Assembly: GCF_019375475.1 (NCBI RefSeq)
Contig: NZ_JAHXGQ010000001.1
Coordinates: forward strand, 434,001 to 498,000
Length of the DNA: 64,000 nucleotides
Source of the DNA: Saccharothrix obliqua
Lineage (GTDB): Bacteria; Actinomycetota; Actinomycetes; Mycobacteriales; Pseudonocardiaceae
Reading direction: 5' to 3'
The notes under the pieces are model-generated. The model searched no databases. It saw only the letters and a program-made list of their open reading frames with translations, and was not told the origin of the DNA. Position numbers and translations under genes: made by a program. Positions 15,278 to 44,090 of the stretch are shown one piece after another. Position 1 is the stretch's first letter, and each line of letters starts with the position of its first letter.

Positions 15278-16006
15278 TCAGTCGCCGCGCCGGACCGCGC
15301 CGAGGATCTGCTGCTCGCCCGGGGTGGTCACGAGGCGCAGCGGGCGCCAGAGGTTCGCGCCGAGCGCGATCACCTGGTCGTCCTTCAACGTGGTGAGCTG
15401 GTGGGCCATCTGCGGCGGCAGGCGCCAGATCTGGCTCGCCAGCTGCGCCTGGCCCACCGGCAACCGCTGCAACAACACCAGGTCCGCCGAGTTCGCGGTG
15501 GTCGCCGCCTGCGGGTGCAGGTACGGCAGGACGTACATGGTGGTCTGCCACGGCGACCGCGGCGGGAACAGCTCCTGCGGCACGTGGCCGCCGTCGTGGA
15601 TGACCAGCAGCGGGGTGTCCTCGGACGGCCGGGGCAGTTCCACCGGGCTGAGCCGGCGCAGCTGCACCAGCGGCGAGGGCCGCCCGTCCGGGCCGGTGCC
15701 CGCCGCGCGCACCACCGGCTGCCACGCCTGCGGCCGGCCGGTGGCGATGGTGATCCACGCGCCGGTCGCCATGGCGCGCAACGCGATCTGCCGCGCCAGG
15801 TACAGCCCGCCGACCACGACCATGCGGGTCGGCGCGGACCGCAGCACGGAGATGGTGAGCGGTTCGCCCTTCAGGCCCGAGCCGAGCACCATGCCGCCGC
15901 GGTCGCCGGACGGCGCGACCACGTCCAGCAGCTGCGGCGCGACCAGGAACTCGGGTGCGACGCCCTGGCCCTGCCCACGCGTGTCCAGCAGCCGCGGGTC
16001 GGTCAC
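15278..16006 (-). CDS. ESX-4 accessory protein next to eccE (degenerate ATPase-like)
   Basis: 242 residues, starting at GTG 16006, which overlaps the eccE stop (GTGA), so the two are coupled. I do not recognise a named family. The centre resembles a RecA-like fold without a functional P-loop: a strand/loop 'RMVVVGGLYLARQIALRAM' where EccC has GxxxxGKS, then 'WITIATGRPQAW', and a Walker-B-like 'PLLVIHDGG'. The end ('LTTLKDDQVIALGANLWRPLRLVTTPGEQQILGAV') reads like a cytosolic regulatory domain. It probably acts with EccE or EccC of the secretion system. Confidence 0.75.
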   Translation of the reverse strand: MTDPRLLDTRGQGQGVAPEFLVAPQLLDVVAPSGDRGGMVLGSGLKGEPLTISVLRSAPTRMVVVGGLYLARQIALRAMATGAWITIATGRPQAWQPVVRAAGTGPDGRPSPLVQLRRLSPVELPRPSEDTPLLVIHDGGHVPQELFPPRSPWQTTMYVLPYLHPQAATTANSADLVLLQRLPVGQAQLASQIWRLPPQMAHQLTTLKDDQVIALGANLWRPLRLVTTPGEQQILGAVRRGD

Positions 16007-17340
16007 GCCACACCCCCCAGCGGGAGGGTGGCGGCCAGGCCCGCGACCTGGAGGCCGTTCAACGGGGTGAGCGTGATGTCCAGCTTGTCCGACAACGCCT
16101 TCAGCCGGTCGTCGGCGCGGTCCAGTTCGGACGGCGTCCGCGCGGACACCCGCACCAGGCCGCGCAGGCCGACCTGGCCCTGCTCGCTGCTCGGCGAGAT
16201 CGTCATGGACAGCGTCGAGGACAACGCGCGCACGCCGGTCAACGCGTTCAGGTTGTTGCGCATACCCTTCGCGGGCCAGCCGGTGATCGCGTACGACGCG
16301 TGCCCGACACCGCCCGCCGTCACGCCGGACCACTTCTCCCGCAACGACACCGGCTTGTTGGCGCCCGCCACGGAGGTCAGCTCGGCGGCCGAGATGCCCG
16401 CGCGGATCAGCTCGTCCGAGTCCAGCGGTCGGATCGCGACACCCGCGGACTCCAACGCGTTGCGCACGCGGGACAACGCGCCGATCAACGCCCGGTGCGC
16501 GCCGACGACGCCGCCGCCGCGCTCCCGGATCGCCGCCGCGCACCGCCGCGGGTCCAGCCGGACCGCGATCCAGGTGGTGCGCCGGGACGCCGCGGGCAGC
16601 GGGCCGAGCACCTCCATGTACGAGTTGAGCGCCGGCGAGTTCGCGGGCAGCGCCGCGCTGCCCGGGTAGCAGTGCCAGATCACGGAGATCGCGTCCAGCA
16701 CCACGCCCCGGTCCTCCAGGGTCGGCGCGAGCGCGCCCAGCGGGAGCGACGGCGCGCTGCCCACGGCCGTGATCAGGCCGGGCGCGGGGTCCACCAGCAG
16801 CACGGCGGTCCACGCGCCCTGGTGCCACGCCATGCCCAGCGGGCGGCGCTCGTGGTCGACGCCCTTGGCCACCACCAGGTCCGGCACGGCCAGCCGCAGC
16901 AACGCGACGCGCGGGTCGTCCGGTCCGATGACCGACGTCTCCTCCTCCGACGGCGGTCGCATCTCGACCGGGCCGGCGCGCTTCGCGGACCGGGTGTGGC
17001 CGCGGAGGTTGTAGCGGACGACGAGGCCGATCCACTGGGTCAGCCACCGGCCGCGGGAGCGGGTGAACGCGAGGACCAGGGCGATCAGCACGATGCCGCC
17101 CGCCGTGTAGAGCAGGGCGGGTGCGACCCGGTCACCGGTCGTGCCGACGGCGACCAGGATCAGGCCCACCGCGACGCCGACCTCCAGGACCACCAGGTTG
17201 GCGACCGGCAGGGAGCCGAGGCTGGCGCCGGTGGCCCGGCGGCGCGCCCGGAGCAGCGCGGCGCGCACGGCGCCACCGGCGGCCTGCGCGCGTGCCATGG
17301 CAGGGTTGGGCGGACCCGGATGTGGGGTGGTCACGGACAT
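16003..17340 (-). CDS. eccE: Type VII secretion membrane protein EccE
   Basis: 445 residues. Two membrane helices lie near the N-terminus (about 42-66 and 72-92), followed by a large soluble domain, the EccE layout. EccE sits at the periphery of the EccBCDE membrane complex. M. tuberculosis ESX-4 lacks EccE, but ESX-4 loci of other actinobacteria carry it, so this is the fuller ESX-4 form. Divergent from eccB with about 126 bp between starts. Confidence 0.85.
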   Translation of the reverse strand: MSVTTPHPGPPNPAMARAQAAGGAVRAALLRARRRATGASLGSLPVANLVVLEVGVAVGLILVAVGTTGDRVAPALLYTAGGIVLIALVLAFTRSRGRWLTQWIGLVVRYNLRGHTRSAKRAGPVEMRPPSEEETSVIGPDDPRVALLRLAVPDLVVAKGVDHERRPLGMAWHQGAWTAVLLVDPAPGLITAVGSAPSLPLGALAPTLEDRGVVLDAISVIWHCYPGSAALPANSPALNSYMEVLGPLPAASRRTTWIAVRLDPRRCAAAIRERGGGVVGAHRALIGALSRVRNALESAGVAIRPLDSDELIRAGISAAELTSVAGANKPVSLREKWSGVTAGGVGHASYAITGWPAKGMRNNLNALTGVRALSSTLSMTISPSSEQGQVGLRGLVRVSARTPSELDRADDRLKALSDKLDITLTPLNGLQVAGLAATLPLGGVA

Positions 17341-19502: not shown

Positions 19503-19514
19503 GGGGTGACCGCG

Positions 19515-20618
19515 GTGCGGGGCAAGGACGGCGGGCAGGTCGCGGCCGAGGTCGGCGCGGAACTGGACTACCTGAGCGGGATCAGCCGCCGGCTGGGCGT
19601 GCGGGACCTGGTGGAGGAGTGCTTCGCGCCGGTCGTCGGCACGTGGAACGACCTGCACGAGGAGGCCGAGCGGTGGCGTGCGGCCGGGTTGGTCGCGGAG
19701 CACGTGACGCGGGACCTGACCAAACCGCTGGGCAAGCTGGACTCCGCGTGGCAGGGGCGGGACGCGGATTCGTTCGTGACGCACATGCAGTCCGTCGGCC
19801 TGGCCGGGCACGACATGTCCGACGCCATGCACGCCATGGGCGAGGCGCTGGACCAGACCGCGGACGGCATCCGGGACATCGTGACCGACATGGCGCGGGT
19901 GCTCGCGGAGGCGGCGGACGCGGTGTCCGGTGCGGCGGCGCTGCCGCTGGACGGCGACCGCCGCGTGGTCGAGGCGCTGGACGAGCTGCGGGACCCGGTG
20001 CGGGAGCTGCACGAGTCCGTGCGTGACGTGCTGGAGGCGTTCCTGCGGTTGTGCGACGGGGTTTCCGGCGCGTCGGAGTTCGACGAGGTGCGGATGGAGC
20101 ACCGGTACCCCGAGCGGGACTGGGCGTTCGACGCGCCGAAGCCCAAGCCCCTCACCGCCGCCGCGGTCGGTGACGCGCCCGCGCCGGCCGGTGCCGCCGC
20201 CCCCGCTGCTCCCGCCGCTCCGACGACTCCGGCCGGTGGTGCTTCCCCGGGTGGCGGCACACCCGGCGGTGGTGCTCCTCCCGGCGGCGGTGGGGTCGGC
20301 GGCGGTGGGGTCGGCGGCGGCGTGCCGGGCGCGGCCCCGCGTGAACCGCAGCTCCAGCCGGGCGGGGTGACCATGGTGCAGGAGCCGAAGCTCCCCGACG
20401 CCGGTCCGCGCCCCGCGCCGACCGCCGCGCCCGCCGCGGGCGGCGGTACCGCCACCGGTGGCGGGATGATGGGTGGCGGGATGATGGGCGGCATGGGCGC
20501 GGCCGGCCAGCAGGGCGGGGACAAGGAGCACAAGTCCAAGGTCCGCCTCGCGGGCACCACCGAGGAGCTGTTCGGCAAGCCCAAGAAGACCGTGCCGGAA
20601 GTGCTCGGCGAGGACTGA
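19515..20618 (+). CDS. WXG100-like secretion substrate with Pro/Gly-rich region and conserved tail (tail A)
   Basis: 367 residues. A helical WXG-type domain (about 1-190) includes 'LDSAWQGRDADSFVTHM', with W-Q-G at the bend. Residues of about 210-330 are Pro/Gly/Ala-rich and probably disordered. The C-terminus carries a Met/Gly block ('GGGMMGGGMMGGM') then 'GTTEELFGKPKKTVPEVLGED'. The same block and tail end the large protein at 40780-43632. GTG 19515 is chosen because GGGGG lies 7 nt before it; the upstream GTG 19506 has no spacing. Probably an ESX-4 substrate. Confidence 0.75.
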   Translation: MRGKDGGQVAAEVGAELDYLSGISRRLGVRDLVEECFAPVVGTWNDLHEEAERWRAAGLVAEHVTRDLTKPLGKLDSAWQGRDADSFVTHMQSVGLAGHDMSDAMHAMGEALDQTADGIRDIVTDMARVLAEAADAVSGAAALPLDGDRRVVEALDELRDPVRELHESVRDVLEAFLRLCDGVSGASEFDEVRMEHRYPERDWAFDAPKPKPLTAAAVGDAPAPAGAAAPAAPAAPTTPAGGASPGGGTPGGGAPPGGGGVGGGGVGGGVPGAAPREPQLQPGGVTMVQEPKLPDAGPRPAPTAAPAAGGGTATGGGMMGGGMMGGMGAAGQQGGDKEHKSKVRLAGTTEELFGKPKKTVPEVLGED

Positions 20619-20688: not shown

Positions 20689-22101
20689 TCAGATCACCGA
20701 GCGGCGCACCGGTGTGGTGCGGCGGGCGCGGTTGCGGTTCACCGTGTGCACGATGAACAACGTCAGCAGCAGCAGGCCCACGCCCGCGCCGGTGCCGGAC
20801 AGCGCCACGATCAGCGGCGTGTGGTCCGGCGGGTTCAGCGGGTCGAGGTCGGTCATCAGCTGCGGCGGGTCGGCGGGCTTGACGCCCTTCTCCGACGGCA
20901 GTTCCGCGGTGAGCGCCGCGATCGGGTTGATCATGCCCGCGCCGACCTTGTGGTCCCGCCCGCCGGGGTTGCCGGGGTGCTGGGCCGTCGCCTTGACGCG
21001 GTCCATCACCTGGTGCGCCGTGAGGTCCGGGAACCGCTGCCGCACCAGGGCCACCACGCCCGCCACGTACGGCGACGCGTAGCTGGTGCCCTGGAGGGGG
21101 CTCGGGGTGCCCTTCTCGTCCACGCGCGCGTCGGACAGCCCCTCACCCGCCGGGTCCAGGGTGGTGATCTGCTCGCCCGGCGCGGCCACGCTGACCCACG
21201 GGCCCCACACCGAGAACGACGACACCGTGCCCTTCTCGCTCATCGAGGCCACGGACAGCACGTTGTCCGCGTACCAGCCCGGCGAGGCGACGATGTTGAC
21301 GTGGTCCGGGTCCTGGTTGTCGTTCTGCACCGAGCAACCGTCGTCGGGCTCGACGTTGCCGGCGGCCGTGACGATGACCACGTCCTTGTCGTTGACCGCC
21401 CAGTCGATCGCGGCCTGGAGTTCGCGCTCCTGCTCGCTCGGGGCGTTGGGCAGCTCGCACGACGTCAGCGAGATGTTGATGACCCGCACGCCCGCGGTCG
21501 CCGCCGCGACGATCGCCTCGGCGAGGGTGCGCACCTTGCCCGCCGACGGCCGGTTGTCCCGGTTGGCGGGGTCCTTGTACTCGAAGTGGCTGCTGGTCTG
21601 GCGGTAGGCGACGACCTCGGCGTCGGGCGCGGCGCCGACGAAACCGGTCTGCTCGTCCCGGCTGGCGGCGGCGATGCCCGCGACCTCCGTGCCGTGGCCG
21701 TCGCAGTCGGACGTGCCGCCCTTCTCCGTCTCCACGTAGTCGCCGCCGGACGTGACCCGGCCACGCAGGCGGGGGTGGTCGGCGTTGACGCCGGTGTCGA
21801 TGATGCCGATCTTCACCCCGGCGCCGGTCGCGAACCGGTGCGCCTCCTCCAGCCGGAGCTGCATCTGGCCCCACGGCTTGTTCGGGATCGGCCGGTTGCC
21901 GGTGCCCGACCGGACGCACTGGGTCTTCTGCGCGTAGTCCACGTCCTCGGCGGGCGGCTTGAACGGCTTGAGGTAGCCGCGGTCCACCGGTGGCGGGGTC
22001 GAGTTGGACTTCGCCTGTTCCTGCGCCTGCGCGCCGGGTGCGCCGACCAGCGTCAGCGCCACGGCGGTCGCGGCGGCGAGCTTGCGCGCGGTGCGGTTCA
22101 C
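20689..22101 (-). CDS. mycP: Type VII secretion-associated serine protease, mycosin
   Basis: 470 residues, subtilisin (S8) family. A signal peptide (about 1-26, 'ALTLVGAPGAQAQ') is followed by the protease domain with catalytic Asp102 ('IIDTG'), His136 ('DCDGHGTEVAG') and Ser340 ('GTSYASP'). A C-terminal membrane helix ('LIVALSGTGAGVGLLLLTLFIVHTV') and a basic tail anchor it with the active site outside. Mycosins stabilise and process ESX systems. The eccD stop lies 4 nt upstream of its start, so eccD-mycP form one unit. Confidence 0.93.
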   Translation of the reverse strand: MNRTARKLAAATAVALTLVGAPGAQAQEQAKSNSTPPPVDRGYLKPFKPPAEDVDYAQKTQCVRSGTGNRPIPNKPWGQMQLRLEEAHRFATGAGVKIGIIDTGVNADHPRLRGRVTSGGDYVETEKGGTSDCDGHGTEVAGIAAASRDEQTGFVGAAPDAEVVAYRQTSSHFEYKDPANRDNRPSAGKVRTLAEAIVAAATAGVRVINISLTSCELPNAPSEQERELQAAIDWAVNDKDVVIVTAAGNVEPDDGCSVQNDNQDPDHVNIVASPGWYADNVLSVASMSEKGTVSSFSVWGPWVSVAAPGEQITTLDPAGEGLSDARVDEKGTPSPLQGTSYASPYVAGVVALVRQRFPDLTAHQVMDRVKATAQHPGNPGGRDHKVGAGMINPIAALTAELPSEKGVKPADPPQLMTDLDPLNPPDHTPLIVALSGTGAGVGLLLLTLFIVHTVNRNRARRTTPVRRSVI

Positions 22102-22105
22102 GGGA

Positions 22106-31077: not shown

Positions 31078-33828
31078 GTGACCGAGTTCAAGGTCCTCGG
31101 ACCCTTGGAGGTCCGGCACGGCGGCGAGCGGGTGCCGGTGCCCGCCGGGCGGGCGCGGGTGCTGCTCGCCACGCTGCTGCTGCGGGCGAACCGGCCGGTC
31201 TCGGCGGACGCGCTGGTGGAACGCCTGTGGGACGGCAGCCCGCCGAACGCGGCCCGCGCGCGGGCCACGCTGCACATGGTGGTGACCCGGCTGCGGCAGG
31301 CGCTGGGCCCGGCGAACGTGGTGCGCACCGCCACCCACGGCTACCTGGCCGAGGTGCCGCCGGGTGCGCTGGACCTGGACGCGTTCCGGGAGCTGGCGGC
31401 CCGCGGCAGGCCCGCGGAGGCGTTGGCGCTGTGGCGTGGCGACGCGTTGTCCGACGTCCGGTCCGATGCGCTGCACCGCGAGGACGTCGCGCCGCTGGAG
31501 GAGGAGCGGCTGGTCGTGCTGGAGCGGCGGCTGGACGCCGACCTGGCCGCGGGCCGGTCCGCCGAGCTGGTCGGCGAGCTGCGGGCGCTGGTCGACCGCC
31601 ACCCGCTGCGCGAGCGGTTCCGGGGCCACCTCATGCTCGCCCTGTACCGGTCGGGCCGGCAGGCCGAGGCGTTGGCCGCCTACCGGGAGGTGCGTGCCCT
31701 GCTCGCCGACGAGCTGGGCGTCGACCCGGGCCCGGAGCTGGTCGAGCTGCACGCCCGCATCCTCGACCGGGGCACGCCACCCGCCGCCGTGCCGCGTCAG
31801 CTGCCCGCGCGGACACCGCACTTCGTCGGCCGGGACGCCGAGCTGGGCGCGTTGGACGACCTGCCGGGCGCGGGCGGACCGGTGGTGATCTCCGCCATCG
31901 ACGGCGCGGGCGGCATCGGCAAGACGGCGCTGGCCGTGACCTGGGCGCACCGCGTGGCGCACCGGTTCCCGGACGGCCAGCTGTACGTGAACCTGCGCGG
32001 GTTCGACCCGGTGGCCGAGCCGCTGCACCCGGCCGAGGTGGTGCGCGGGTTCCTCACGGCGCTGGGCGTGCCGCCGGAACGCGTGCCGCCCGGCGCGGAC
32101 GAGCAGGCCGCGTTGTACCGGACCACGCTCGCCGGGCGGCGGGTGCTGGTGCTGCTGGACAACGCGCGTGACGTGGACCAGGTCCGGCCGCTGCTGCCCG
32201 GCAGCGCGCGGTGCCTGACCCTGGTGACCAGCCGCAACCGGCTGGCGGGCCTGGTCGCGCGTGAAGGCGCGCGGCCGGTCGTGCTGGGCGTGCTGGCCGA
32301 GCCCGACGCGCGGCGGCTGCTCGCGGGCGTCGTCGGTGCGGACCGGGTGGCCCGCGAACCGGCCGCCGCGACGCGGCTGGTGGAGCTGTGCGCGGGCCTG
32401 CCGCTGGCGCTGGCCGTGGTGGCGGCGCGGGCGGCGGTCGACCCGACCCGCCCGCTGGCCGCCCGGGTCGAGGAGCTGGCGGGCGCACGCCTGCCCGCGT
32501 TGGACGACGATGACCCGTACAGCGACGTGCGTGCCGTCGTGTCGTGGTCGTACCGGGCGTTGTCGGAGGGCGCGGCGCGGGTGTTCCGGCTGGCGAGCCT
32601 GCACCCCGGGCGGACCCTGTCGGCGGCGTCCGCGCGGTCCGCGGCGGGCGTCACCGAGGACGGGGTGCGTGCCGCGCTGGCCGAGCTGGTCGACGCGAAC
32701 CTGCTGGCCGAGGTGGGCCCGGACCGGTACGCCTACCACGACCTGGTCCGCGAGTGGGCCGCCGAGCGGGCGGGTGACGAGGCCGCCGCCGCGCGTCGCC
32801 GCGTCTTCGACCACCTGCTGCACGCGGCGGTCGCCGCGGCGGGGCTGATCGACCCGAGCCGCGGTGCCATGCCCGTGCCGCCCGCACCGCCGGCGGTCGG
32901 CGTCGCGCCCTGGCGACCCGCCGACGCGGCCGCCGCGTGGGAGTGGCTGGACGTCGAGTGCGAAGCGCTCATCGCGACCGTGCGCGTCGCGGTCGACGTC
33001 GGCGCGGACCAGGTGGCGTGGCAGCTCTGCTGGACCATGGCGCAGTTCTTCGACCGGCGCGGCCGGTGGCACGACTGGCTGGGCGTGCAGCGGCTGGCGA
33101 TGACGGCCACCGCGCGGCTGGGCGACGACACCGCGCACGCCGTGACGCAGTTCAACGCCGGGCACGTGCTGGCCCGGGTCGGCGCGCACGGCGAGGCGGC
33201 CGAGGTGATGGGCGAGGCGCTGGCGGCGTACCGGCGTGCGGGCGACCTGGTCGGCCAGGGCAAGGTCAACCGCACGATGGCGTGGGTGCGCGACCTGGAG
33301 GGCCGGTACCCGGAGGCGCTGGAGCACGCCTGGGCGGCCGTCGAGTGCTTCACCGCCGTCGACGACGTGCTGGGCCTCGCCGGCGCGTACAACGCGATCA
33401 GCGTCTACGAGACCCAGCTCGGCGACTACCGGTCCGCGCTCGACCACGCCACCCGCGCGGTGGAGGCGCAACGCGCGGCGGGCCACCGCTACGGGCTCGC
33501 GAACGCCCTCGACACGCTGGGCTACGCGCACCACCACCTCGGCGACCACCGGCGGGCACTGGCGTGCTTCGCCGAGTCGGTGCGGATCTTCCGGGAGGTC
33601 GGCGGCCAGTCGCTGGAGGCGGAGGTGCTGGCCCACCGGGGCGAGGCGGAGGAGGCGCTGGGCGACGTCGTGGCCGCGCGCCGGACGTGGACCGCGGCGC
33701 TGGAGCTGATGGACCGGATGGGGCACGTCAAGGCCGACGAGGTGCGTGCCCGCCTCGCCGCCGCCGGGGACACCGGACCGCGGCGGATACCCTCGCCTGG
33801 CGGCGGTGACGACGGGGGTGACCGATGA
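31078..33828 (+). CDS. AfsR/SARP-family transcriptional regulator 2
   Basis: 916 residues, the same architecture as the preceding gene and very similar in the first 400 residues ('VLGPLEVRHGGERVPVPAGRARVLLATLLLR'), so a tandem duplication. The P-loop 'GAGGIGKTAL' lies near residue 276, with C-terminal TPR-like repeats at about 690-900. GTG 31078 is chosen because the protein starts exactly as its paralogue does. Its TGA overlaps the ATG of the Hsp70-like secretion gene (ATGA), which ties this regulator to the secretion locus at the translation level. Confidence 0.9.
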   Translation: MTEFKVLGPLEVRHGGERVPVPAGRARVLLATLLLRANRPVSADALVERLWDGSPPNAARARATLHMVVTRLRQALGPANVVRTATHGYLAEVPPGALDLDAFRELAARGRPAEALALWRGDALSDVRSDALHREDVAPLEEERLVVLERRLDADLAAGRSAELVGELRALVDRHPLRERFRGHLMLALYRSGRQAEALAAYREVRALLADELGVDPGPELVELHARILDRGTPPAAVPRQLPARTPHFVGRDAELGALDDLPGAGGPVVISAIDGAGGIGKTALAVTWAHRVAHRFPDGQLYVNLRGFDPVAEPLHPAEVVRGFLTALGVPPERVPPGADEQAALYRTTLAGRRVLVLLDNARDVDQVRPLLPGSARCLTLVTSRNRLAGLVAREGARPVVLGVLAEPDARRLLAGVVGADRVAREPAAATRLVELCAGLPLALAVVAARAAVDPTRPLAARVEELAGARLPALDDDDPYSDVRAVVSWSYRALSEGAARVFRLASLHPGRTLSAASARSAAGVTEDGVRAALAELVDANLLAEVGPDRYAYHDLVREWAAERAGDEAAAARRRVFDHLLHAAVAAAGLIDPSRGAMPVPPAPPAVGVAPWRPADAAAAWEWLDVECEALIATVRVAVDVGADQVAWQLCWTMAQFFDRRGRWHDWLGVQRLAMTATARLGDDTAHAVTQFNAGHVLARVGAHGEAAEVMGEALAAYRRAGDLVGQGKVNRTMAWVRDLEGRYPEALEHAWAAVECFTAVDDVLGLAGAYNAISVYETQLGDYRSALDHATRAVEAQRAAGHRYGLANALDTLGYAHHHLGDHRRALACFAESVRIFREVGGQSLEAEVLAHRGEAEEALGDVVAARRTWTAALELMDRMGHVKADEVRARLAAAGDTGPRRIPSPGGGDDGGDR

Positions 33829-35600
33829 GCTTGCGCGTGGCGGTCGACTTCGGCACGTCCAGCACGTGCGTGGCCATCTCGGTCAACGGCCGGGAACCGC
33901 AGGTCGTCGTGGTGGACGGCCAGCCGATCCTGCCCTCCGCCGTGTTCGCCGCCGCCGACGGCGCGTTGTTCGTCGGGCAGGAGGCGGAGCGGCAGGCGGC
34001 GGTCGACCCGTCCCGGTACGAGCCGCACCCGAAGCGCCGCGTCGACGAGGGCGAACTGCTGCTGGGCACCAGCGTGCTGAAGGTCGTGGACGTGGTGCGG
34101 GCCGTGCTCACCCGCGTGGTGGCCGAGGCGCGGCACGTCGCGGGCGGCGTGCCGGTCGACCTGCTGGTGCTCACGCACCCGGCGGACTGGGGCGCGATCC
34201 GCACCAGGGTGCTGCTCGCGGCGGGCCGCGGGCTCGGCCGGGAGCTGCGGCTGGTGCCGGAACCGGTGGCGGCGGCCGTGTTCCACTCGGCGTCGCACGC
34301 CGTGCCCGAGGGCGCGGCGCTGGCCGTGCTGGACCTGGGCGGCGGCACCGTGGACGCGAGCGTGGTGACCCGGCAGGGCGGCGCGTTCCGGGTGCTGGCG
34401 GCCAAGGGCGACCCGACGTTCGGCGGCGCGGACGTCGACCAGGCGTTGCTGGAGCACGTGGGTTCGCTGGTGTCGCCGCGGGACCCGGAGGCGTGGCGGC
34501 AGCTCGTGGAGGGCCGGGAACTGGCCGACCGGCGCAAGCGGCGCGTGCTGCGGCAGGACGTGCGGGGCGCGAAGGAGACGCTGTCCCGCCACTCGTACAC
34601 CGACGTGCCGATGCCGCCGCCGTTCCCGGACGCGCACGTGACCCGGGCCGACCTGGAGCGCCTGGTGGGCGCGCCGCTGAACCGGGCCGTGGAGCTGCTC
34701 GTGGCGGCCGTGCGGGACGCCGGGCTCGACCCCCGCGGCCTGGCCGGGGTGTTCCTGGTCGGCGGCTCCAGCCGCATCCCGCTGGTGGCCCGGCTGGTGC
34801 TGGAGCGGACCGGGGTGGTGCCGACCAGCATCGACCAGCCGGAGACGGTGGTGGCGCGCGGCGCGTTGCGCGCGGTGACCACTGACCCGATGCGCACCGG
34901 CGCGCTGCCCGACCAGGCGGACGTGACGCACCGGGTCACGACCGACCAGACCCGCCGGATCACCCGCCGCATCCAGCCGGACCTGCCGCCGCCGGTCGGT
35001 TTCCCGCACCCCCACCCGCCCCGGACCCGCAACCGCGCGCCGCTCGTCGTCGGCGTGGTGCTCGCGCTGGTCGCGGTGGTGGGTGGAACGGTCGCGTACG
35101 CGCTGGCCGTGCGGGAACGCGGCGACCCCACGTCGCCCGCGACGAGCACGACGCCGAGCGCGGGCAAGACCATCGCCCAGTACGACTACGAGTTCGCCCT
35201 GCCCGCGGGCTGGGAGCAGACCGGCGGCGCCGCCGAGACCCGGCAGGTGTTCATCAAGCCGGTCGACCGGGCCGGGCGCCCGGACGACGTGATCGCGGTG
35301 ACGGAGCAGAAGCTCACCTACGACTCGTCGGCCGACCGCGGTCGGGCGGTCGCCCAGCTGCGTGCCGAGTACGACCGGGGCGGCGGGCGGGAGTTGTCCG
35401 GTTTCGCCGAGAACGCGAACTTCGGCGGCAAGGATGTCGTCTACTACCGGGAGCAGGCCGGCACCGTGACCGTCGACTGGTACGTGTTCTTCCAGCGCGA
35501 CGCGCAGGTGAGCGTGGGCTGCCAGTACCCGGACCCGGGCCAGGACCGGGTCCGCCCGGCGTGCGAGCAGGTGGTGCGCACGCTGACCGTGACGAACTGA
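33825..35600 (+). CDS. Type VII secretion-associated protein, Rv3446c family, with Hsp70-like ATPase domain
   Basis: 591 residues. Residues 1 to about 350 are an Hsp70/actin-type ATPase: phosphate-1 'VAVDFGTSSTC', phosphate-2 'AVLDLGGGTVDAS' and adenosine motif 'VFLVGGSSRIP'. No substrate-binding domain follows. Instead a Pro-rich linker and one membrane helix (about 407-430) lead to an extracytoplasmic domain ('YDYEFALPAGWEQTG...VTVDWYVFFQRDAQVSVGCQYP'). The position beside eccC and before the WXG100 pair is that of Rv3446c in M. tuberculosis ESX-4. The family name is assigned by layout and recall, not by search. Confidence 0.8.
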   Translation: MSLRVAVDFGTSSTCVAISVNGREPQVVVVDGQPILPSAVFAAADGALFVGQEAERQAAVDPSRYEPHPKRRVDEGELLLGTSVLKVVDVVRAVLTRVVAEARHVAGGVPVDLLVLTHPADWGAIRTRVLLAAGRGLGRELRLVPEPVAAAVFHSASHAVPEGAALAVLDLGGGTVDASVVTRQGGAFRVLAAKGDPTFGGADVDQALLEHVGSLVSPRDPEAWRQLVEGRELADRRKRRVLRQDVRGAKETLSRHSYTDVPMPPPFPDAHVTRADLERLVGAPLNRAVELLVAAVRDAGLDPRGLAGVFLVGGSSRIPLVARLVLERTGVVPTSIDQPETVVARGALRAVTTDPMRTGALPDQADVTHRVTTDQTRRITRRIQPDLPPPVGFPHPHPPRTRNRAPLVVGVVLALVAVVGGTVAYALAVRERGDPTSPATSTTPSAGKTIAQYDYEFALPAGWEQTGGAAETRQVFIKPVDRAGRPDDVIAVTEQKLTYDSSADRGRAVAQLRAEYDRGGGRELSGFAENANFGGKDVVYYREQAGTVTVDWYVFFQRDAQVSVGCQYPDPGQDRVRPACEQVVRTLTVTN

Positions 35601-35616
35601 CTTGGGTGGGTGGCAG

Positions 35617-36042
35617 ATGACCGGCGTCCCGGAGGCTTTCGACAGGTTCCGCGCGGACCTCGCCGCGGCCGTGACCAGGGGCAGGCGGGCCGCCGCCGCG
35701 GCCGGCGCGAAGAACGCCGCGCTGCGGGACCGGAACCGGGAGTCGGCGCGGCAGGCGCGGGACCGCGCCGTGCGGCCCGGCGAGCACGTGCCGACGCCCG
35801 ACGACGTGCGGCGGGTGGCCACCGGGTTCCGCGAGTACCGGGGTTTGCCGGTGGACCGCTTGCCGGACGCCGCCGAACTGCTCGCGCCGCCCGGGAAATC
35901 GCAGGAGCAAACGGACGCGAATGCAAATACCGCGTCCGCGCCGGAGCCGTCGGGATCGCGCCCGGTGGCCGGGCCGAGCGGCCAACTGCCCCCGGAAACA
36001 GGCGATGACGAGGACTTTTCGCAAGCGCGAATCCTGTACTGA
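35617..36042 (+). CDS. Small helical secretion-locus protein with DDEDF tail (tail B)
   Basis: 141 residues; no family recognised. A charged, Ala/Arg-rich helical first half ('FDRFRADLAAAVTRGRRAAAAAG') is followed by a polar linker and the acidic end 'GDDEDFSQARILY'. The protein at 43629-44090 is built the same way and ends 'DDDDDFGGQSWLT'. ATG 35617 is preceded by GGGTGGGTGG; an upstream ATG at 35602 is less well placed. It lies between the Rv3446c-type gene and the WXG100 pair. Confidence 0.65.
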   Translation: MTGVPEAFDRFRADLAAAVTRGRRAAAAAGAKNAALRDRNRESARQARDRAVRPGEHVPTPDDVRRVATGFREYRGLPVDRLPDAAELLAPPGKSQEQTDANANTASAPEPSGSRPVAGPSGQLPPETGDDEDFSQARILY

Positions 36043-36197: not shown

Positions 36198-36515
36198 ATG
36201 GCTGGTTACGCAACCGGAGTCCCGGCGCTCCAGAACGCCGCCAAGGACATCATGGACACCAACGGGAACGTTCAGGGCATCCTGAACAACCTGCGGAACA
36301 CCATCGACGGCCTTGCCCCCGCGTGGAAGGGTTCGGCGGCGGACGCGTTCACCAACCTGATGAACCGCTTCAACGACGACGCCGCCAAGCTCCAGGAGGC
36401 GCTGGTCGGCATCGCCGAGCAGATCACCGGCACGGTGCAGACCTACGTGCAGCAGGAAGAGGAGCAGTCCTCCGAGATGTCGACCATCCTCGGTCGCCTC
36501 GGCGGCGGTGCGTGA
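36198..36515 (+). CDS. WXG100 protein, first partner of the esx pair
   Basis: 105 residues forming two helices around the WXG turn (W43-K-G45 in 'APAWKGSAADAF'). A YxxxE secretion motif follows the second helix (Y83-E87, 'TYVQQEEEQ'). These small proteins are secreted as dimers by ESX systems. By position it corresponds to EsxU of M. tuberculosis ESX-4. The partner gene starts 82 bp downstream, and rplM follows the pair as in mycobacteria. Confidence 0.92.
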   Translation: MAGYATGVPALQNAAKDIMDTNGNVQGILNNLRNTIDGLAPAWKGSAADAFTNLMNRFNDDAAKLQEALVGIAEQITGTVQTYVQQEEEQSSEMSTILGRLGGGA

Positions 36516-37308: not shown

Positions 37309-37435
37309 CCTACGTTGTTGTGCGGTACTCGGTGCGCACTCGCGTGCCGTGTTCTGGTCCACCTGCCCACCTGGGGTGCCTGGCCTGAGCAGCCGCCGCA
37401 ATGACCCCAGACGCAAGTGACGACGAGGTAGACCC

Positions 37436-37879: not shown

Positions 37880-38430
37880 CCGAGCCGTACACCGAGGAAG
37901 CCGAAGTGACCACCCCTGAGGTCGACGCGCCGGTCGAGGCCGAGGCCCCGGCCGAGGTCGAAGCCGTCGAGTCCGCCGACGTGGACGAGGCCGCCGAGCA
38001 GGCGCCCGCCCCCGTCGCCCGCCCCGTGCTCAGCGCGGGCGCGCACCACCTGGCGCAGACCGTGGGCCGCCGCAAGGAGGCCATCGTCCGCGTGCGCCTG
38101 CTGCCCGGCACCGGCAAGTTCACCCTGAACGGGAAGTCGCTGGAGCAGTATTTCCCGAACAAGGTGCACCAGCAGCTCATCCGCGAGCCCCTGGTGACCA
38201 CCGAGAAGCCCGAGACCTTCGACGTCGTCGCGAACCTGCGCGGCGGCGGCACCACCGGTCAGGCCGGCGCGCTGCGCCTGGCCATCGCCCGCGCGCTGAT
38301 CGCCGTGGACTCCGAGGACCGCCCGGTGCTGAAGAAGGCCGGCTTCCTCACCCGTGACCCCCGGGTCAAGGAGCGCAAGAAGTACGGCCTCAAGAAGGCG
38401 CGCAAGGCGCCTCAGTACAGCAAGCGCTGA
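37876..38430 (+). CDS. rpsI: 30S ribosomal protein S9
   Basis: 184 residues, long for S9 because of an acidic N-terminal extension of about 55 residues rich in Glu/Ala/Val. The S9 domain follows ('[33 protein letters not shown]') and the conserved C-terminus '[20 protein letters not shown]' ends in the Lys-Arg that contacts P-site tRNA. Extensions of this type are common in actinobacterial S9. Confidence 0.97.
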
Positions 38431-38449
38431 TCGAGCGCCGAGCACCACC

Positions 38450-38497
38450 CTGCGGGAGCAGTCAGTTCTTCACCGAACTGCTGCTCCCGCAGTCTTT
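38450..38497 (+). terminator. Intrinsic terminator after rpsI
   Basis: CTGCGGGAGCAG (38450-38461) pairs with CTGCTCCCGCAG (38481-38492). An inner stem (CAGTTC 38463-38468 with GAACTG 38475-38480) extends it, and TCTTTT follows. A strong terminator separating rpsI from glmM. Confidence 0.92.
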
Positions 38498-38542
38498 TCC
38501 CCACCCGGCGATGTGTGGTTGATCACGGAGGTCATGGCGGTC

Positions 38543-39877: not shown

Positions 39878-39905
39878 CGCCGTCTAGTCCGTCGGGGGTG
39901 CCGGA

Positions 39906-40301
39906 ATGGGCATTGGCTTCATCCCGCTGATCGGGATCGTGCTGCTCGTCATCGCCGCGGTGGTGGTGGTCGTCGTGCTGGTGAAGAGGAGCAGGAGCCG
40001 CGCCGCCCAACCCGGCTACGGCCCGCCTCCCGGCTACGGTCAGCCCTTCCCGGGTCAGCCCGTTCAGGGGCAACCCTTCCCGGGGCAGCCCCTTCCCGGC
40101 CAACCGGCCCCGGGTCAGGCGTTTCCCGGACAGCCCGGTCCGCCGACCCCGGGTCAAGCCTTCCCGGGGCAGTTCGCGCCCGGCGGCACCCCGCCCGCCC
40201 AGGGGGCGCCCGGGTGGCCCGACCCGAACGGTCCGGGTGGGTCCGGCCAGGGTCCGCGGCCCCCATTCCCGCAGACGCAGTTCCCGCCCTCGCCGCAGTA
40301 G
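39906..40301 (+). CDS. Single-pass membrane protein with Pro-Gly-Gln repeats
   Basis: 131 residues. One N-terminal membrane helix (about 4-26, 'GFIPLIGIVLLVIAAVVVVVVL') then a basic stop-transfer 'KRSRSR' and a low-complexity tail made of PGQ/FPGQP repeats. Function unknown. Such Pro/Gly/Gln tails are flexible and are seen on actinobacterial membrane and secretion-associated proteins. It sits between glmM and the second substrate block. Confidence 0.7.
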   Translation: MGIGFIPLIGIVLLVIAAVVVVVVLVKRSRSRAAQPGYGPPPGYGQPFPGQPVQGQPFPGQPLPGQPAPGQAFPGQPGPPTPGQAFPGQFAPGGTPPAQGAPGWPDPNGPGGSGQGPRPPFPQTQFPPSPQ

Positions 40302-40477
40302 TCGCGCACCCCCGGCCGCCACTCGCGCGTTCACACCTGCAAGGAGCAGGTGGGAATTGCCGCGAAGCGGTCCCGGTGGCTGTCACGATGGGAACCGGGT
40401 ACCGGGGCGTCGCGTCCCAACGAACGAGTTCGGCTGAAGGGTCGTGGCCGTCGTGCCACGGAGGGGAGTGAGGCGCC

Positions 40478-40780
40478 GTGGCCGGTTACAACACCAGCAC
40501 CGAGGCGATGCAAAAAGCCTCGAAGGGCATTTCCGACGCCGCGAAGGACACGGGGGAAGACCTCAAGAAGGTCGGTCAGACGGAAACCGCCGACGCCGAT
40601 TTCGGCCAGGCGCACAAACAGCACTTCGGCAAGTACAAGTCCGGGATCGAGAATTTCGGCAAGGGTATCGCCAACATGGCGGGCACGCTCCAGGGTTTCG
40701 CGGGCCGGATCGCGTCCGGCGCCGCGACCTACGGTGACGTCGAGGCGACGAACGCGACCAACGTGGGGAGCCAGCACTGA
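40478..40780 (+). CDS. Small helical ESX-associated protein (Rv3440c position)
   Basis: 100 residues, mostly helical, starting at GTG 40478 with GGAGGGGAG upstream. No W-x-G is present, but 'ATYGDVEATN' near the C-terminus has a YxxxE export-type motif (Y-G-D-V-E). It ends one base into the next start (TGATG), so it is coupled to the large substrate-like protein. By position (after glmM) it corresponds to Rv3440c. Probably a secreted or chaperone-like partner. Confidence 0.7.
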   Translation: MAGYNTSTEAMQKASKGISDAAKDTGEDLKKVGQTETADADFGQAHKQHFGKYKSGIENFGKGIANMAGTLQGFAGRIASGAATYGDVEATNATNVGSQH

Positions 40781-43632
40781 TGGCCGGGCCGAGCTGGGAC
40801 GACGTGAAGGCGGTCCTCGACGACCCGAACGTGTCCGAGGAGAAGAAGGCGGACTTGATGCACGCCTACGTCTCCGCCACCCCGCCGTGGGACATCCCGG
40901 ACGGCGCCGACACGTACAAGGACCGGTACGACACCTCGAGCTTCTGGAACTGGGGCGACTACGCGGGTCGCGGCGACAACCTCCAGAGCCGCCTGGACGA
41001 GGCGAAGGCCGAGAGCGACACCAAGGGCTACAACAGCCGCGAGCAGACCAAGGCCGTGGACGAGGGCCAGAAGTCGCTGGAGGGCAAGCAGCCGCCGACC
41101 GCGGCCGGTTCCGGCACCAAGACGTCGGACGAGCTGTTCGACGCGGGCAAGGCCGGCCTGAAGGTCTTCGAGAAGTTCCTGCCGATCTGGAACAACCGGC
41201 CCGGCGACTGCCTCGGCAACACGTCCAACCTGGACTTCGGCAACCACATCCAGAAGCCGTACGACGAGCAGCGCGGCATCAACTTCCAGAAGCTGCTCCA
41301 GGAAGCCGACGAGTTCAGCACCGCCAAGTCGAAGATCGACGACATGAAGGCGGACGTCGACGGGCAGCTCAAGACGCTGTACGGCGAGTGGGAGGGCAAG
41401 GCCGCCACCAAGTCGTACGAGCACTACACGGACCAGATCGTCCCGAAGATCACCGAACTCGGCGACGGCCTGAACGGCGCGGCGGACCTGACCCGGACCG
41501 CGGTCGGCGGCGTGTACCAGTTGTGCAAGGGCAAGGCGGACGAGGTCCTGGACATGTACCGGGAGCGGATCGCCAAGGCCGACACGTACATGGCGGAGAA
41601 GGTCGTCTCGTTCGCGCGTGGCGAGGGCGACTACTCCAAGGACCGCGTGCGTGAGATCGCGGGTTGGGTCGACTCGGTGGTCGAGGGCAGCAACATCGCC
41701 GACCGCCTCAACGACGACGACTGCTCCTTGAACGACGAGAACAAGGAGTACGCGATCAACCAGTGCAAGCGCTGGATCCAGCAGTCGTTCAACGTCGAGT
41801 TCTGGGGCCTGTACGAGCAGTTCAAGGGCTGCTGCGAGGACACCAAGACCTCGGTGGACGGCAAGTGGGAGACGCTCGCCTCCTACATGGCCGAGTTCGA
41901 GAACCCGTTCCCCGCGCCCGCCGACGACAAGGGCGGCGATGACGGCAACGGGAACGGGAACGGCAACGGCACTGGGAACGGGAACGGGAACGGCACGGGG
42001 GGCAGCACCGGCACCGGCGGTGGTGGCGGCACCGGCACCGGTGGCGGCTCGGGTTCCGGTGGCGGCGGCGGGACGCCGTCCGTGCCGGAGATCCCGAAGC
42101 CGGAGAACCCGCTCGACAAGGACGGCGACGGCAAGCCGGACGTCAAGATCCCCGGTGACACCGACGGTGACGGCAAGCCCGACGTCAAGATCCCGGGCGA
42201 CACCGACGGCGACGGCAAGCCCGACGACCTCGACGGCGACGGCAAACCCGACGGCAAGCCGGACGGGCTGAAGGGCGAGGAGGAAGCGCCCGAGACCGTC
42301 ACCATCAAGAGCGGTGACAACGAGATCAAGGTCACCGAGCCGGACGCCAACGGCCACGTGAAGATCACCGTCGACACGCCGACCAGCGAGCCGAAGACCT
42401 ACGACGTCGACTTCAGCAAGAACCCCGACGCGCTCAAGGCCCTCACCGGCCAGCAGGGCGGTGCGGCGTTGGCCGGAGCGTTGGCGGGTGCGACGCCGAC
42501 CACCCCCGGCACGCCGACCGCTCCCGGCGCACCGACGACGCCCGGCGCGCCCGACGCCGCCACGCCGGTGGCGGCGGGTCCGGACGGCAAGGCGCTGATC
42601 CAGCTGGAGGGCCTGGCGATCACCGCCGAGGTCGACCCGCTGACCGGCGAGATCAACCTGACCGTGGACAACGGCGACGGCACCCCCGAGGAGTACGGCG
42701 TCGAGTTCGGCGAGGACTCGAAGGACGTCCCCGGCATCCCCACCATCGAAGGCGCCGTGCCGCTGCCCGCCGAGGGCGACCAGGTGACCACCATGCCCGC
42801 GCCCGCCGACGAGACGTTCCGACCGGAACCCCCGCTCGCCGACGGCGGGTCCGGTGGCGGTGCGGGGGCGGGCTTCACCACCGCGGAAGGCACCCTCGCC
42901 GCCGACATCGGTTTCGACCGGGTCGAGACGGCCCCGGCCGCCGGTTTCGCGCCGGACAGCGCGGTTCCCGCGAGCGCGACGGCGGCGGCCGGCTTCGCGG
43001 CGGCCGACGCCGGCCTGGCGACACCGCCCTCCGGCTTCACCCCGCCGTCCGGTTTCACCCCTCCCGAGGCGATGCCCGGCGGTGCCGCGCACTCCGGGTT
43101 CGGCTTCACCGAGCCGGTCGCGCAGCAGTCCTCGTTCTCGCCGCCGGGGCAGTTCTCGCCGGGGCAGTTCGCACCGGCCGACCACGGCCCGCTGGTGGCG
43201 TCCGACCCGAGCGGCACGACGACGGCGTCCGGCGCGTCCGTGTTCGGCGGTTCCGGCGGGACGAGCGGGTTCAACGGTGCGGACTCGGTGCTCGGCGGCG
43301 GTTCGCCGGGTGCGGACAACACGTGGACCAGTCCGCCGTCCGACCGCGCCGACCAGGGGTTGAACGCCGACACCAACACGTCCAACGCGGGGCAGCCCGG
43401 TGGGGCGACGTTGCCGTCCATGCAGGACCAGCACGCGCAGTCGGCCCAGAGCCCGATGGGTGGCGGCATGATGGGCGGCGGGATGATGGGTGGTGGCATG
43501 GCGGGTGCCGGCCAGCAGCAGGGCGGTGACAGCGAGCGCAGCCCGGGGCAGTGGCGCACCACCGGTTCGCTGTTCGACGACGACCTGAGCCTCAGCCGCG
43601 TGCAGGGCGTGCTGGGTGAGGAGGGCCGATGA
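40780..43632 (+). CDS. Large WXG-type secretion substrate with DxDGDG repeats and conserved tail (tail A)
   Basis: 950 residues. A helical N-terminal region (about 1-385) contains 'YGEWEGKAATKSYEHY', a W-E-G turn, and several Cys. A Gly/Asn/Thr-rich linker follows (about 388-440), then four acidic repeats of the DxDGDGKPD type (about 446-497), which resemble calcium-binding thrombospondin-3/dockerin loops. Next come a beta-rich stretch, an Ala/Pro/Gly-rich region and the tail 'GGGMMGGGMMGGGM...TTGSLFDDDLSLSRVQGVLGEEGR'. The tail matches the substrate at 19515-20618. The position corresponds to Rv3439c. Confidence 0.75.
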   Translation: MAGPSWDDVKAVLDDPNVSEEKKADLMHAYVSATPPWDIPDGADTYKDRYDTSSFWNWGDYAGRGDNLQSRLDEAKAESDTKGYNSREQTKAVDEGQKSLEGKQPPTAAGSGTKTSDELFDAGKAGLKVFEKFLPIWNNRPGDCLGNTSNLDFGNHIQKPYDEQRGINFQKLLQEADEFSTAKSKIDDMKADVDGQLKTLYGEWEGKAATKSYEHYTDQIVPKITELGDGLNGAADLTRTAVGGVYQLCKGKADEVLDMYRERIAKADTYMAEKVVSFARGEGDYSKDRVREIAGWVDSVVEGSNIADRLNDDDCSLNDENKEYAINQCKRWIQQSFNVEFWGLYEQFKGCCEDTKTSVDGKWETLASYMAEFENPFPAPADDKGGDDGNGNGNGNGTGNGNGNGTGGSTGTGGGGGTGTGGGSGSGGGGGTPSVPEIPKPENPLDKDGDGKPDVKIPGDTDGDGKPDVKIPGDTDGDGKPDDLDGDGKPDGKPDGLKGEEEAPETVTIKSGDNEIKVTEPDANGHVKITVDTPTSEPKTYDVDFSKNPDALKALTGQQGGAALAGALAGATPTTPGTPTAPGAPTTPGAPDAATPVAAGPDGKALIQLEGLAITAEVDPLTGEINLTVDNGDGTPEEYGVEFGEDSKDVPGIPTIEGAVPLPAEGDQVTTMPAPADETFRPEPPLADGGSGGGAGAGFTTAEGTLAADIGFDRVETAPAAGFAPDSAVPASATAAAGFAAADAGLATPPSGFTPPSGFTPPEAMPGGAAHSGFGFTEPVAQQSSFSPPGQFSPGQFAPADHGPLVASDPSGTTTASGASVFGGSGGTSGFNGADSVLGGGSPGADNTWTSPPSDRADQGLNADTNTSNAGQPGGATLPSMQDQHAQSAQSPMGGGMMGGGMMGGGMAGAGQQQGGDSERSPGQWRTTGSLFDDDLSLSRVQGVLGEEGR

Positions 43633-44090
43633 GCGTCGCGTCGGACCGGTTGGCCGCGGCCAAGAGCCGGATGGACCAGATCTCCCGCGAGCACGCCGAC
43701 CGGCGGGAGCTGAGGGAACGCCACTCCCGGGAGGCCAGGGAGAAGGCGGGGCAGAGCCTCGACAAGCAGGCCGCGGTCGCGGAGAAGACCATCGAGCGCA
43801 TCCAGGAGGCCGGCAAGCGCCAGAAGGCAGCCGGCGGCTGGGGCACCACGGCGGCCACCGAGAAGAAGGGCGGCGAGTACCGCTTCGGGGCGGAGGAGGA
43901 CGAACCCACCTACGAGGCCCCCGCGCCCGGCAACACCTGGGTGTCCTCCACCCCGCCGCCACCCACCCCGCCCCCGCCGGTCACGCCACCGCCACCCGCA
44001 CCCCGCCCGACTCCGCCGCGCCCGGCACCACGCCGCCCGGCTCCGGTGGACGACGATGACGATTTCGGCGGGCAGAGCTGGCTGACATGA
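43629..44090 (+). CDS. Small helical protein with DDDDDF tail (tail B)
   Basis: 153 residues, start ATG overlapping the stop of the large substrate gene (ATGA). A charged coiled-coil-like first half ('AKSRMDQISREHADRRELRERHSREAREKAG') is followed by a Pro/Thr-rich stretch and the acidic end 'DDDDDFGGQSWLT'. It pairs in design with the protein at 35617-36042. No named family recognised; probably cytosolic helper or co-substrate of the secretion system. Confidence 0.65.
   Translation: MSVASDRLAAAKSRMDQISREHADRRELRERHSREAREKAGQSLDKQAAVAEKTIERIQEAGKRQKAAGGWGTTAATEKKGGEYRFGAEEDEPTYEAPAPGNTWVSSTPPPPTPPPPVTPPPPAPRPTPPRPAPRRPAPVDDDDDFGGQSWLT

What the first reader, a model, noticed from the sequence alone, without database searches (positions are those of the whole stretch)
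15278..44090. Elaborated ESX-4 locus with two substrate blocks around rplM-rpsI-glmM
The order eccE/eccB/mycP/eccD/eccC/Rv3446c-like/esx pair/rplM/rpsI/glmM/Rv3440c-like/Rv3439c-like matches M. tuberculosis ESX-4, but adds eccE with a partner, EspC-like and WXG substrates, SARP regulators and small tail-B proteins. ESX-4 is considered the ancestral system and its natural substrates are poorly known.
Basis: partly seen in the sequence, partly recalled or inferred. Interest (0 to 1): 0.7.

Follow-up and report, generated by a model that had tools for sequence, protein, structure and literature searches.

The report
ESX-4 secretion locus with tagged adaptor proteins
This soil bacterium carries one ancestral-type protein export machine (ESX-4) whose probable cargo helpers end in the same short acidic peptide, also found on helper proteins beside toxin genes elsewhere in the genome, which suggests a shared delivery label that can be tested directly.

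Summary
EccC branches with ESX-4-type systems, apart from the other mycobacterial clades. The 'partner' of EccE is EccE's own C-terminal domain as a second gene: fused in 5, split in 5 of 10 other genomes read; present in 49 of 49 named loci that were selected by EccE. The downstream block (WXG-like partner, 950-aa protein, tail protein) is kept after glmM in 20 of 20 relatives chosen by the tail gene; 3 of 6 Mycobacteriaceae-type genomes have a WXG-like plus large-protein pair there, without tail gene. New point: g34 and g42 share nothing detectable but an extreme C-terminal tag, DDDDFxxxxWL-like, also on YbaB-type proteins encoded beside WXG100 genes across the genome, some with TNT, EndoU, deaminase or RHS proteins. 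I read them as adaptors that dock diverse cargo on the single machine. That role is inferred; secretion is untested.

The parts
15278..16006 (-). g23, 242 aa: C-terminal domain of EccE encoded as a separate gene, overlapping eccE by 4 bp
   Evidence: No Pfam hit; profile A5 matches the C-terminal end of single-ORF EccE in 5 of 10 other genomes read and a separate following gene in the other 5
16003..17298 (-). g24 EccE (N-terminal part)
   Evidence: TIGR03923 177 bits, PF11203 102 bits
17515..19098 (+). g25 EccB
   Evidence: TIGR03919 320 bits
19143..19502 (+). g26 small helical partner, EspC-like below cut-off (start 19143 or 19152)
   Evidence: PF10824 16.3 bits, below 23.5; found with g27 in 43 of 49 named loci
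19506..20618 (+). g27 WXG-hairpin protein with Gly/Met-rich stretch and C-terminal P-x-V-L-G-E (start 19506 or 19515)
   Evidence: PF06013 24.2 bits, below 27.3; alignment A7
20689..22101 (-). g28 mycosin MycP
   Evidence: TIGR03921 368 bits
22106..23500 (-). g29 EccD
   Evidence: TIGR03920 300 bits
23762..27763 (+). g30 EccC, the only full-length one among 3 matches in the genome
   Evidence: TIGR03924 and TIGR03925; whole-genome search; tree
28259..30991 (+). g31 SARP/AfsR-type regulator
   Evidence: BTAD, Trans_reg_C, NB-ARC and TPR
31078..33828 (+). g32 second SARP-type regulator
   Evidence: BTAD, NB-ARC and TPR
33825..35600 (+). g33 Hsp70-like ATPase domain plus Rv3446c-type C-terminal domain (ESX-4 marker)
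   Evidence: PF00012 123 bits, TIGR03931 96 bits
35617..36042 (+). g34 tail protein 1, probable adaptor of the esx pair
   Evidence: No family hit; alignment A3 (8 of 9 sequences in hand); found in 9 of 20 relatives' loci by its tag
36004..36039 (+). C-terminal tag of g34, DDEDFSQARILY
   Evidence: hhalign of A3 with A4 and with A2 returns this segment alone
36198..36515 (+). g35 WXG100 protein (EsxT/EsxU position)
   Evidence: PF06013 65 bits
36598..36885 (+). g36 WXG100 protein (EsxT/EsxU position)
   Evidence: PF06013 71 bits
37436..39877 (+). rplM, rpsI and glmM, the conserved housekeeping insert
   Evidence: gene calls and synteny
40478..40780 (+). g40 WXG-like partner, 100 aa
   Evidence: weak PF06013 14.4 bits; profile of its relatives matches the gene after glmM in 3 Mycobacteriaceae-type genomes, but also Esx genes of two others
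40780..43632 (+). g41, 950 aa candidate substrate: WXG domain, Gly-rich and DxDG-repeat linker, two repeated segments, C-terminal LFDDD...GVLGE
   Evidence: PF06013 30.9 bits; alignments of its relatives
43629..44090 (+). g42 tail protein 2, probable adaptor of g40/g41
   Evidence: AlphaFold model, mean pLDDT 75, pTM 0.34: one helix 3-67, then low-confidence chain; relatives in the family
44049..44087 (+). C-terminal tag of g42, DDDDDFGGQSWLT
   Evidence: hhalign A2 with A4, 95.9%, E 6e-9, this segment alone; synonymous-only differences against two of three congeners

Best explanation
The locus encodes the genome's single ESX-4 translocase (EccB, EccC, EccD, MycP, and an EccE made as two polypeptides) together with three hairpin substrate modules: g26/g27, g35/g36 and g40/g41. 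The small proteins g34 and g42 are cytosolic adaptors or chaperones of the second and third module. Each has its own body, for binding its cargo, and a disordered arm that ends in the same acidic-aromatic peptide, which docks the loaded complex on the translocase. YbaB-fold proteins bearing the same peptide do this for scattered WXG100 cassettes, several with toxin domains, so that one machine exports them all. Shown: gene identity, ESX-4-type phylogeny, conservation, the shared tag, its link to WXG genes. Inferred: cargo binding, docking, secretion, and EccC as the likely receptor.
For: Core genes and single full-length EccC; EccC tree; EccE split. Three families with unrelated bodies (A2, A3, A4) share only their C-terminal ends by profile comparison, E 6e-9, 5.5e-6 and 4.3e-5. 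Loose tag in 13 of 18 YbaB/tail proteins against 7 of 296 other called proteins of this genome; strict tag in 5 of 313, all 5 among those 18. In 30 family loci, 25 have a gene matching a WXG profile next and 22 carry the tag. YbaB genes beside a RecR-like gene: 0 of 14 tagged (my count of rows). Tag of g42: 6.0 synonymous and 0 non-synonymous differences against each of two congeners. Literature: YbaB-like EspH binds EspE and is proposed as its chaperone (PMC6107294, passages); one study finds ESX-4 the sole system required for export of the TNT toxin CpnT (PMC8593097, passages).
Against: No interaction, structure of a complex or secretome. g34 and g42 have no YbaB hit. The tag was defined on the proteins in which it was first counted, so searches are partly circular; A4 was built from 10 of the 15 YbaB proteins of the genome that are not beside recR, leaving out untagged ones; the loci came from a profile that includes the tag columns. 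5 of the 18 own proteins fail the loose rule, which is generous (L107 and L108 pass with unusual ends). tail1 is found in only 9 of 20 relatives. The tag is absent from 26 of 28 class-level loci, Streptomyces-like YbaB neighbours of T7SS-type genes included, and no tail gene was called in the 3 mycobacterial blocks, so ESX-4 in general does not need it. Against a third congener the g42 tag shows 2.5 non-synonymous differences. Another study titles CpnT an ESX-5 substrate that needs three systems (PMC8092274, listing only). The receptor is unknown.
Confidence: 0.55

Rival explanations
1. The tail proteins are themselves exported with their module, and the tag is a secretion signal working in cis, like the YxxxD/E arm of mycobacterial substrates, not a docking label of a cytosolic adaptor.
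For: The tag is at or near the C-terminus of small proteins co-encoded with hairpin pairs; g42 is modelled as one helix plus a low-confidence arm.
Against: The scattered tagged proteins have YbaB domains, and YbaB-like Esp proteins are proposed cytosolic chaperones; the substrates g27 and g41 carry a different C-terminal end.
Confidence: 0.2
2. The tail and YbaB proteins are DNA-binding regulators of the neighbouring operons, and the acidic tag is a regulatory or turnover signal.
For: PF02575 is named for DNA binding, and 7 of the 8 small proteins scanned match it over cut-off.
Against: YbaB genes beside RecR-like genes lack the tag, 0 of 14; the authors of the espH study exclude transcriptional control of espE by EspH in M. 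marinum (PMC6107294, passages); g34 and g42 have no YbaB hit.
Confidence: 0.15
3. Block B (g40-g42) is unrelated to secretion and only shares the old glmM-glmS neighbourhood.
For: It is separated from the esx pair by three housekeeping genes; g40 is a weak WXG match.
Against: g41 has a WXG100 domain over cut-off; the large gene and tail gene are kept in 20 of 20 loci chosen by g42, with a second copy in 6; g42 carries the tag also seen on the esx-pair tail gene.
Confidence: 0.1

Closest known systems
Mycobacterial ESX-4 (M. tuberculosis, M. abscessus)
   Same: EccB, EccC, EccD, MycP, Rv3446c-type protein, esx pair, rplM-rpsI-glmM; a WXG-like plus large protein after glmM in 3 of 6 Mycobacteriaceae-type genomes checked.
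   Different: EccE present and split in two genes; g26/g27 module, SARPs and tagged tail proteins added. [quoted passage not shown] abscessus-chelonae complex (PMC9401124, passages).
ESX-4EVOL (Newton-Foot et al. 2016)
   Same: ESX-4-related cluster with eccE (PMC4791881, passages).
   Different: No EccA over cut-off in the genome, and no EspG, PE or PPE hit over cut-off among the 18 proteins scanned with Pfam.
EspH/EspD/EspL chaperones of ESX-1
   Same: YbaB-like proteins proposed as dedicated chaperones of T7SS substrates (PMC6107294, PMC6319747, passages); most of the scattered tagged proteins here have YbaB domains.
   Different: g34 and g42 have no YbaB hit; the C-terminal tag. Of four Mycobacteriaceae-type YbaB loci read, two (L292, L293) have the tag and two (L298, L303) do not.
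LXG-Lap1/Lap2 targeting factors (type VIIb)
   Same: Small partner proteins, one with a conserved motif, that deliver toxin hairpins to the translocase (PMC9600955, passages).
   Different: Other phylum; Lap proteins resemble WXG100 and their FxxxD motif lies near the end of a helix; here the motif ends a probably disordered arm.

Membership tests
ESX-4 type VII secretion system | EccB, EccC, EccD and MycP together | tested here: met
   all above NCBIfam cut-offs
ESX-4 type VII secretion system | Rv3446c-type protein (TIGR03931) next to EccC | tested here: met
   g33 over cut-off, here two SARP genes lie between; in the order 12 of 61 genomes are over cut-off, and in the 6 of these outside the window's family it lies within 1 kb of an EccC
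ESX-4 type VII secretion system | linkage to rplM-rpsI-glmM | tested here: met
   3 of the 6 Mycobacteriaceae-type comparison loci lack it within the 20 kb taken
ESX-4 type VII secretion system | EccC groups with ESX-4, not ESX-1/2/3/5 | tested here: met
   tree of 33 EccC; 20 rows with the window and all TIGR03931-linked EccC set apart from 13 others, 99/98.
ESX-4 type VII secretion system | no EccA | tested here: met
   no match over cut-off in the genome; 7 weaker matches such as occur in all 14 control genomes
ESX-4 type VII secretion system | no EccE (as in most mycobacterial ESX-4) | tested here: not met
   EccE 177 bits against 108; this feature is not universal, M. abscessus has EccE4
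ESX-4 type VII secretion system | exports its substrates | not testable with these tools
   needs a secretome
YbaB-like T7SS chaperones | YbaB domain in g34 and g42 | tested here: not met
   no PF02575 hit; profiles share only the tag with the YbaB set
YbaB-like T7SS chaperones | YbaB domain in the scattered tagged proteins | tested here: met
   7 of 8 small proteins over cut-off, L108 has none; 16 PF02575 matches in the genome
EspC family (PF10824) | g26 over the family cut-off | tested here: not met
   16.3 against 23.5 bits
WXG100 (PF06013) | over cut-off | tested here: inconclusive
   g35, g36, g41 pass; g27 and g40 do not

The most novel reading that the evidence does not exclude
Pseudonocardiaceae use one short C-terminal peptide as a common address label: adaptors with unrelated bodies (long helix, tail1 type, YbaB fold) carry it and bring about a dozen different substrates, several with toxin domains, to the one ESX-4 translocase, whose receptor site for this peptide defines which cargo is exported.
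Probability: 0.4. Interest if true: 0.8.

Novelty: new variant of a known kind. Interest (0 to 1): 0.6.

Why it matters
The substrates of ESX-4 are poorly known; a 2025 study of M. abscessus says that further substrates beyond EsxU/EsxT remain to be identified (PMC11791044, passages). This locus names a conserved candidate pair (g40/g41 type) at a fixed place, explains the 'extra gene' beside eccE, and offers a peptide label by which further T7SS cargo can be found in genomes and tested in a harmless organism with a single machine. It also bears on the model that eccE entered ESX systems on plasmids after ESX-4 (PMC4791881, passages): the same paper counts the clusters of Pseudonocardiales and Streptomycetales as ESX-4, and eccE is in the Pseudonocardiaceae loci read here and in Streptomyces (PMC8401907, passages).

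Tried and rejected
g34 and g42 as one family: pairwise alignment no better than shuffles (z 0.4); rejected, they share only the tag. g42 as a YbaB fold: the model is one long helix, and Foldseek against PDB gave no match. g23 as a degenerate ATPase or new subunit: PDB searches by sequence and profile gave nothing credible; given up once it matched the end of single-ORF EccE. The EccC tree used wrong reading frames for some rows and was replaced. The structure of g41 was never returned (ticket not finished), so its fold is not known here. The g42 search (96 of 150 genomes, E up to 0.01) contains proline-rich chance matches; I do not use its count. A promoter and terminator scan gave 1 promoter-like site (0.1 expected) and 3 terminator-like sites (4.0 expected) in 35500-45200; not followed. 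Rows left out before counts: A1 has 23 of 27 large proteins in hand, A2 24 of 27 tail2, A3 8 of 9 tail1, A4 10 of the 15 YbaB proteins not beside recR.
Full report
What is there. Gene calling by a script of my own gave 60 genes in the window. Window 15278-44090 holds g23 to g42: EccE with g23, EccB, the g26/g27 pair, MycP, EccD, EccC, two SARP regulators, g33, g34, the esx pair g35/g36, rplM, rpsI, glmM, then g40, g41 and g42. The core components pass curated cut-offs. The genome, 8.04 Mb in 49 contigs and 97 percent complete, has one full-length EccC among 3 matches and no EccA over cut-off. The best EccE match in named genomes is Saccharothrix tamanrassetensis at 96 percent, records of the window's own genome possibly being left out, so this is a Saccharothrix or a very near relative.

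ESX-4 identity. In 61 genomes of the order, TIGR03931 passes its cut-off in 12, and in the six of these outside the window's family it lies within 1 kb of an EccC. The 20 also hold three EccC of a further cluster in those genomes, and branches joining the window's part to the TIGR03931-linked rows have 81/80 and 91/91. The program flags two long end branches within the 20 (G418_f46b, G152_f2_ESX4), a meeting of long branches within the 13, and odd composition in three rows.

The EccE partner. g23 has no Pfam hit and overlaps eccE by 4 bp. Its profile matched 32 of 246 genomes of the class; EccE passed its cut-off in 40 of 246. I read ten of these loci: in five (L204-L207, L211) EccE is one ORF of 588 to 752 aa, stop to stop, with the g23 domain at its C-terminal end; in five (L208-L210, L212, L213) the g23 domain is in another ORF that follows. 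In the Mycobacteriaceae-type ORFs the match covers only about profile positions 15 to 105. A scan with EccE gave 49 loci with named records, mostly genera of Pseudonocardiaceae (family recalled; one record is titled Nocardia, two Actinopolyspora). They were selected by EccE: g23, EccB and a MycP match are in 49, EccC and EccD in 48, g26 and g27 in 43. g23 (67 to 94 percent identity to the window) is about as conserved as EccE or more (60 to 90). So 'eccE with a partner' is a two-gene EccE. A 2016 model has eccE gained on plasmids after ESX-4 (PMC4791881, passages). eccE in Streptomyces was known (PMC8401907, passages). I did not root the history.

Block B. Twenty loci of relatives, chosen by their g42 match, hold after glmM a large gene that BLAST matches to g41 (20 of 20), a small gene before it (matched to g40 in 17, by position in 3) and a tail gene; six (L040, L041, L042, L044, L047, L049) have a second large and tail gene. 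In L038 the stretch ends inside the large gene and the tail gene comes first. In three of six Mycobacteriaceae-type ESX-4 loci (L321-L323) the order is Rv3446c-like, esx genes, rplM, rpsI, glmM, a WXG-like gene (E 2e-11 to 7e-8), a 439 to 451 aa protein that matches the WXG part of the g41 profile (E 2e-11 to 2e-8), the hydrolase and glmS, with a few other genes between and no tail gene; in the other three no rplM was called in the 20 kb taken. These profile matches are not fully specific: an Esx gene of L325 scores 8e-8 and one of L324 3e-4 with the g40 profile, and an Esx gene of L324 scores 3e-7 with the g41 profile; the place is the stronger argument. In M. tuberculosis I recall these genes as Rv3440c and Rv3439c. 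A text search for those names found six papers, none with either name in title or abstract; I did not read them.

The tag. g34 and g42 do not align better than shuffles. Profiles of their families and of ten YbaB-type proteins from this genome were compared with hhalign; each comparison returned one segment, the C-terminal 18 to 22 columns: A2 with A4 95.9 percent, E 6e-9; A2 with A3 85.7 percent, E 5.5e-6; A3 with A4 69.4 percent, E 4.3e-5. The ten were chosen from 15 YbaB proteins and leave out untagged ones. Typical ends are DDDDDFGGQSWLT (g42), DDEDFSQARILY (g34), DDDDDFGGRSFLS (L100) and HDDDFSDDSYLS (L130). A DNA pattern scan of the genome, 31 hits against 22 for the reversed control, first pointed to the others. 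By a strict rule 5 of 313 called proteins of this genome carry the tag, all five tail or YbaB proteins, and in relatives 27 of 34 tail proteins against 0 of 328 others, with 7 of 34,000 shuffled ends. By a loose rule it is 13 of 18 YbaB/tail proteins against 7 of 296 others in this genome, and 31 of 34 against 11 of 328 in relatives. The rules were made after seeing examples, so these counts are partly circular. In 30 family loci, the best match of each of 30 genomes including this one, found with the YbaB profile that includes the tag columns, 25 have a gene matching a WXG profile next, 22 the tag, 19 both; in 28 class-level loci 5 have the WXG neighbour and 2 the tag (L292, L293), and of 14 that I count as lying beside a RecR-like gene none has it (RecR is recalled from its sequence). 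Against two congeners the 13 tag codons of g42 show 6.0 synonymous and 0 non-synonymous differences each; against a third, with a one-residue deletion, 4.5 and 2.5. For g34 the tag codons differ too little to tell.

The scattered cassettes. PF02575 has 16 matches in the genome. Reading their surroundings showed tagged YbaB genes followed by a small WXG-type gene and a larger gene in several places. The larger genes carry TNT (L101; in L105, whose end fails the loose rule, a later gene), a YwqJ-type deaminase (L100), EndoU (a later gene in L106), RHS repeats (L133) and a DXD glycosyltransferase domain (a later gene in L109, which also fails the loose rule; a clostridial-type hit there is below cut-off). 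The WXG100_2 domain is over cut-off in L101, L105, L106 and L107, below it in L100 and L133. Separate modules with EspG genes, beside genes with PPE matches just below cut-off, occur at L102 and L103, and an EspG gene at L099. In M. tuberculosis one study reports ESX-4 as the sole system required for export of the TNT toxin CpnT (PMC8593097, passages), while another titles CpnT an ESX-5 substrate that needs three systems (PMC8092274, listing only). Only the first fits one ESX-4 machine serving TNT cassettes here.

How it most likely works. Each module makes a hairpin substrate pair. A small adaptor binds it in the cytosol and presents the acidic-aromatic peptide at the end of a flexible arm (g42 model: helix 3-67, then low-confidence chain). 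The peptide docks on the single translocase, EccC being my first guess because it is common to all modules. Precedents are the YbaB-like EspH, which binds EspE (PMC6107294), EspL (PMC6319747) and the Lap targeting factors of type VIIb systems (PMC9600955), all read as passages. No binding or secretion was shown here.

Novelty. Text searches for YbaB with type VII secretion, YbaB, WXG100, EbfC and toxin, type VII secretion with Saccharothrix and related terms show, among the rows listed, no paper that by title or abstract describes such a tag or a two-gene EccE; several of these lists were capped, and most subscription papers are not held. I rate it a new variant of a known kind.

Noticed in passing
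L038, L039, L041, L042, L044, L045, L047 (ACP with two ketosynthase-like genes); L040, L048 (AMP-ligase with ACP): In 9 of 20 relatives' loci lipid-type genes sit beside or inside block B (by sequence resemblance); Pfam-checked only in L045 (PP-binding, two ketoacyl synthases) and L040 (AMP-binding, PP-binding). They may acylate the substrate or its carrier.
   Followed up: partly
L136 and L036 (Saccharothrix yanglingensis Hhs.015; L036 assigned to it by equal contig length): An ESX-4 locus is present in this strain, although a paper on it says that no type VII system was predicted in its genome (PMC10098051, passages).
   Followed up: partly
G000 C44:200902-204185 (L107): An FtsK-like 921-aa ATPase followed by two small 83 and 86 aa proteins, apart from the ESX-4 locus; weak EssC-type match.
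   Followed up: no
L044 764-1411: A tail1 protein with two copies of the tag, one internal (DEDFSQ) and one near the end (DDEDFSQQRIL).
   Followed up: no
window 20592-20618 and 43606-43632; L099, L102, L103, L107: A second C-terminal signature, roughly [VI]-[IL]-G-[ED], on PPE- or WXG-like proteins including g27 and g41.
   Followed up: no
window 37040-37234: Four copies of a 47-bp repeat between the esx pair and rplM.
   Followed up: no
L135 12304-13860 and similar loci: A gene matching MycP (33 to 43 percent in the four loci measured) follows g23 in many relatives but is missing from the window, where another gene ends about 20 bp from g23.
   Followed up: no
window 55444-58416: A possible third SARP-type regulator gene outside the locus (the class rests on sequence resemblance only).
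   Followed up: no
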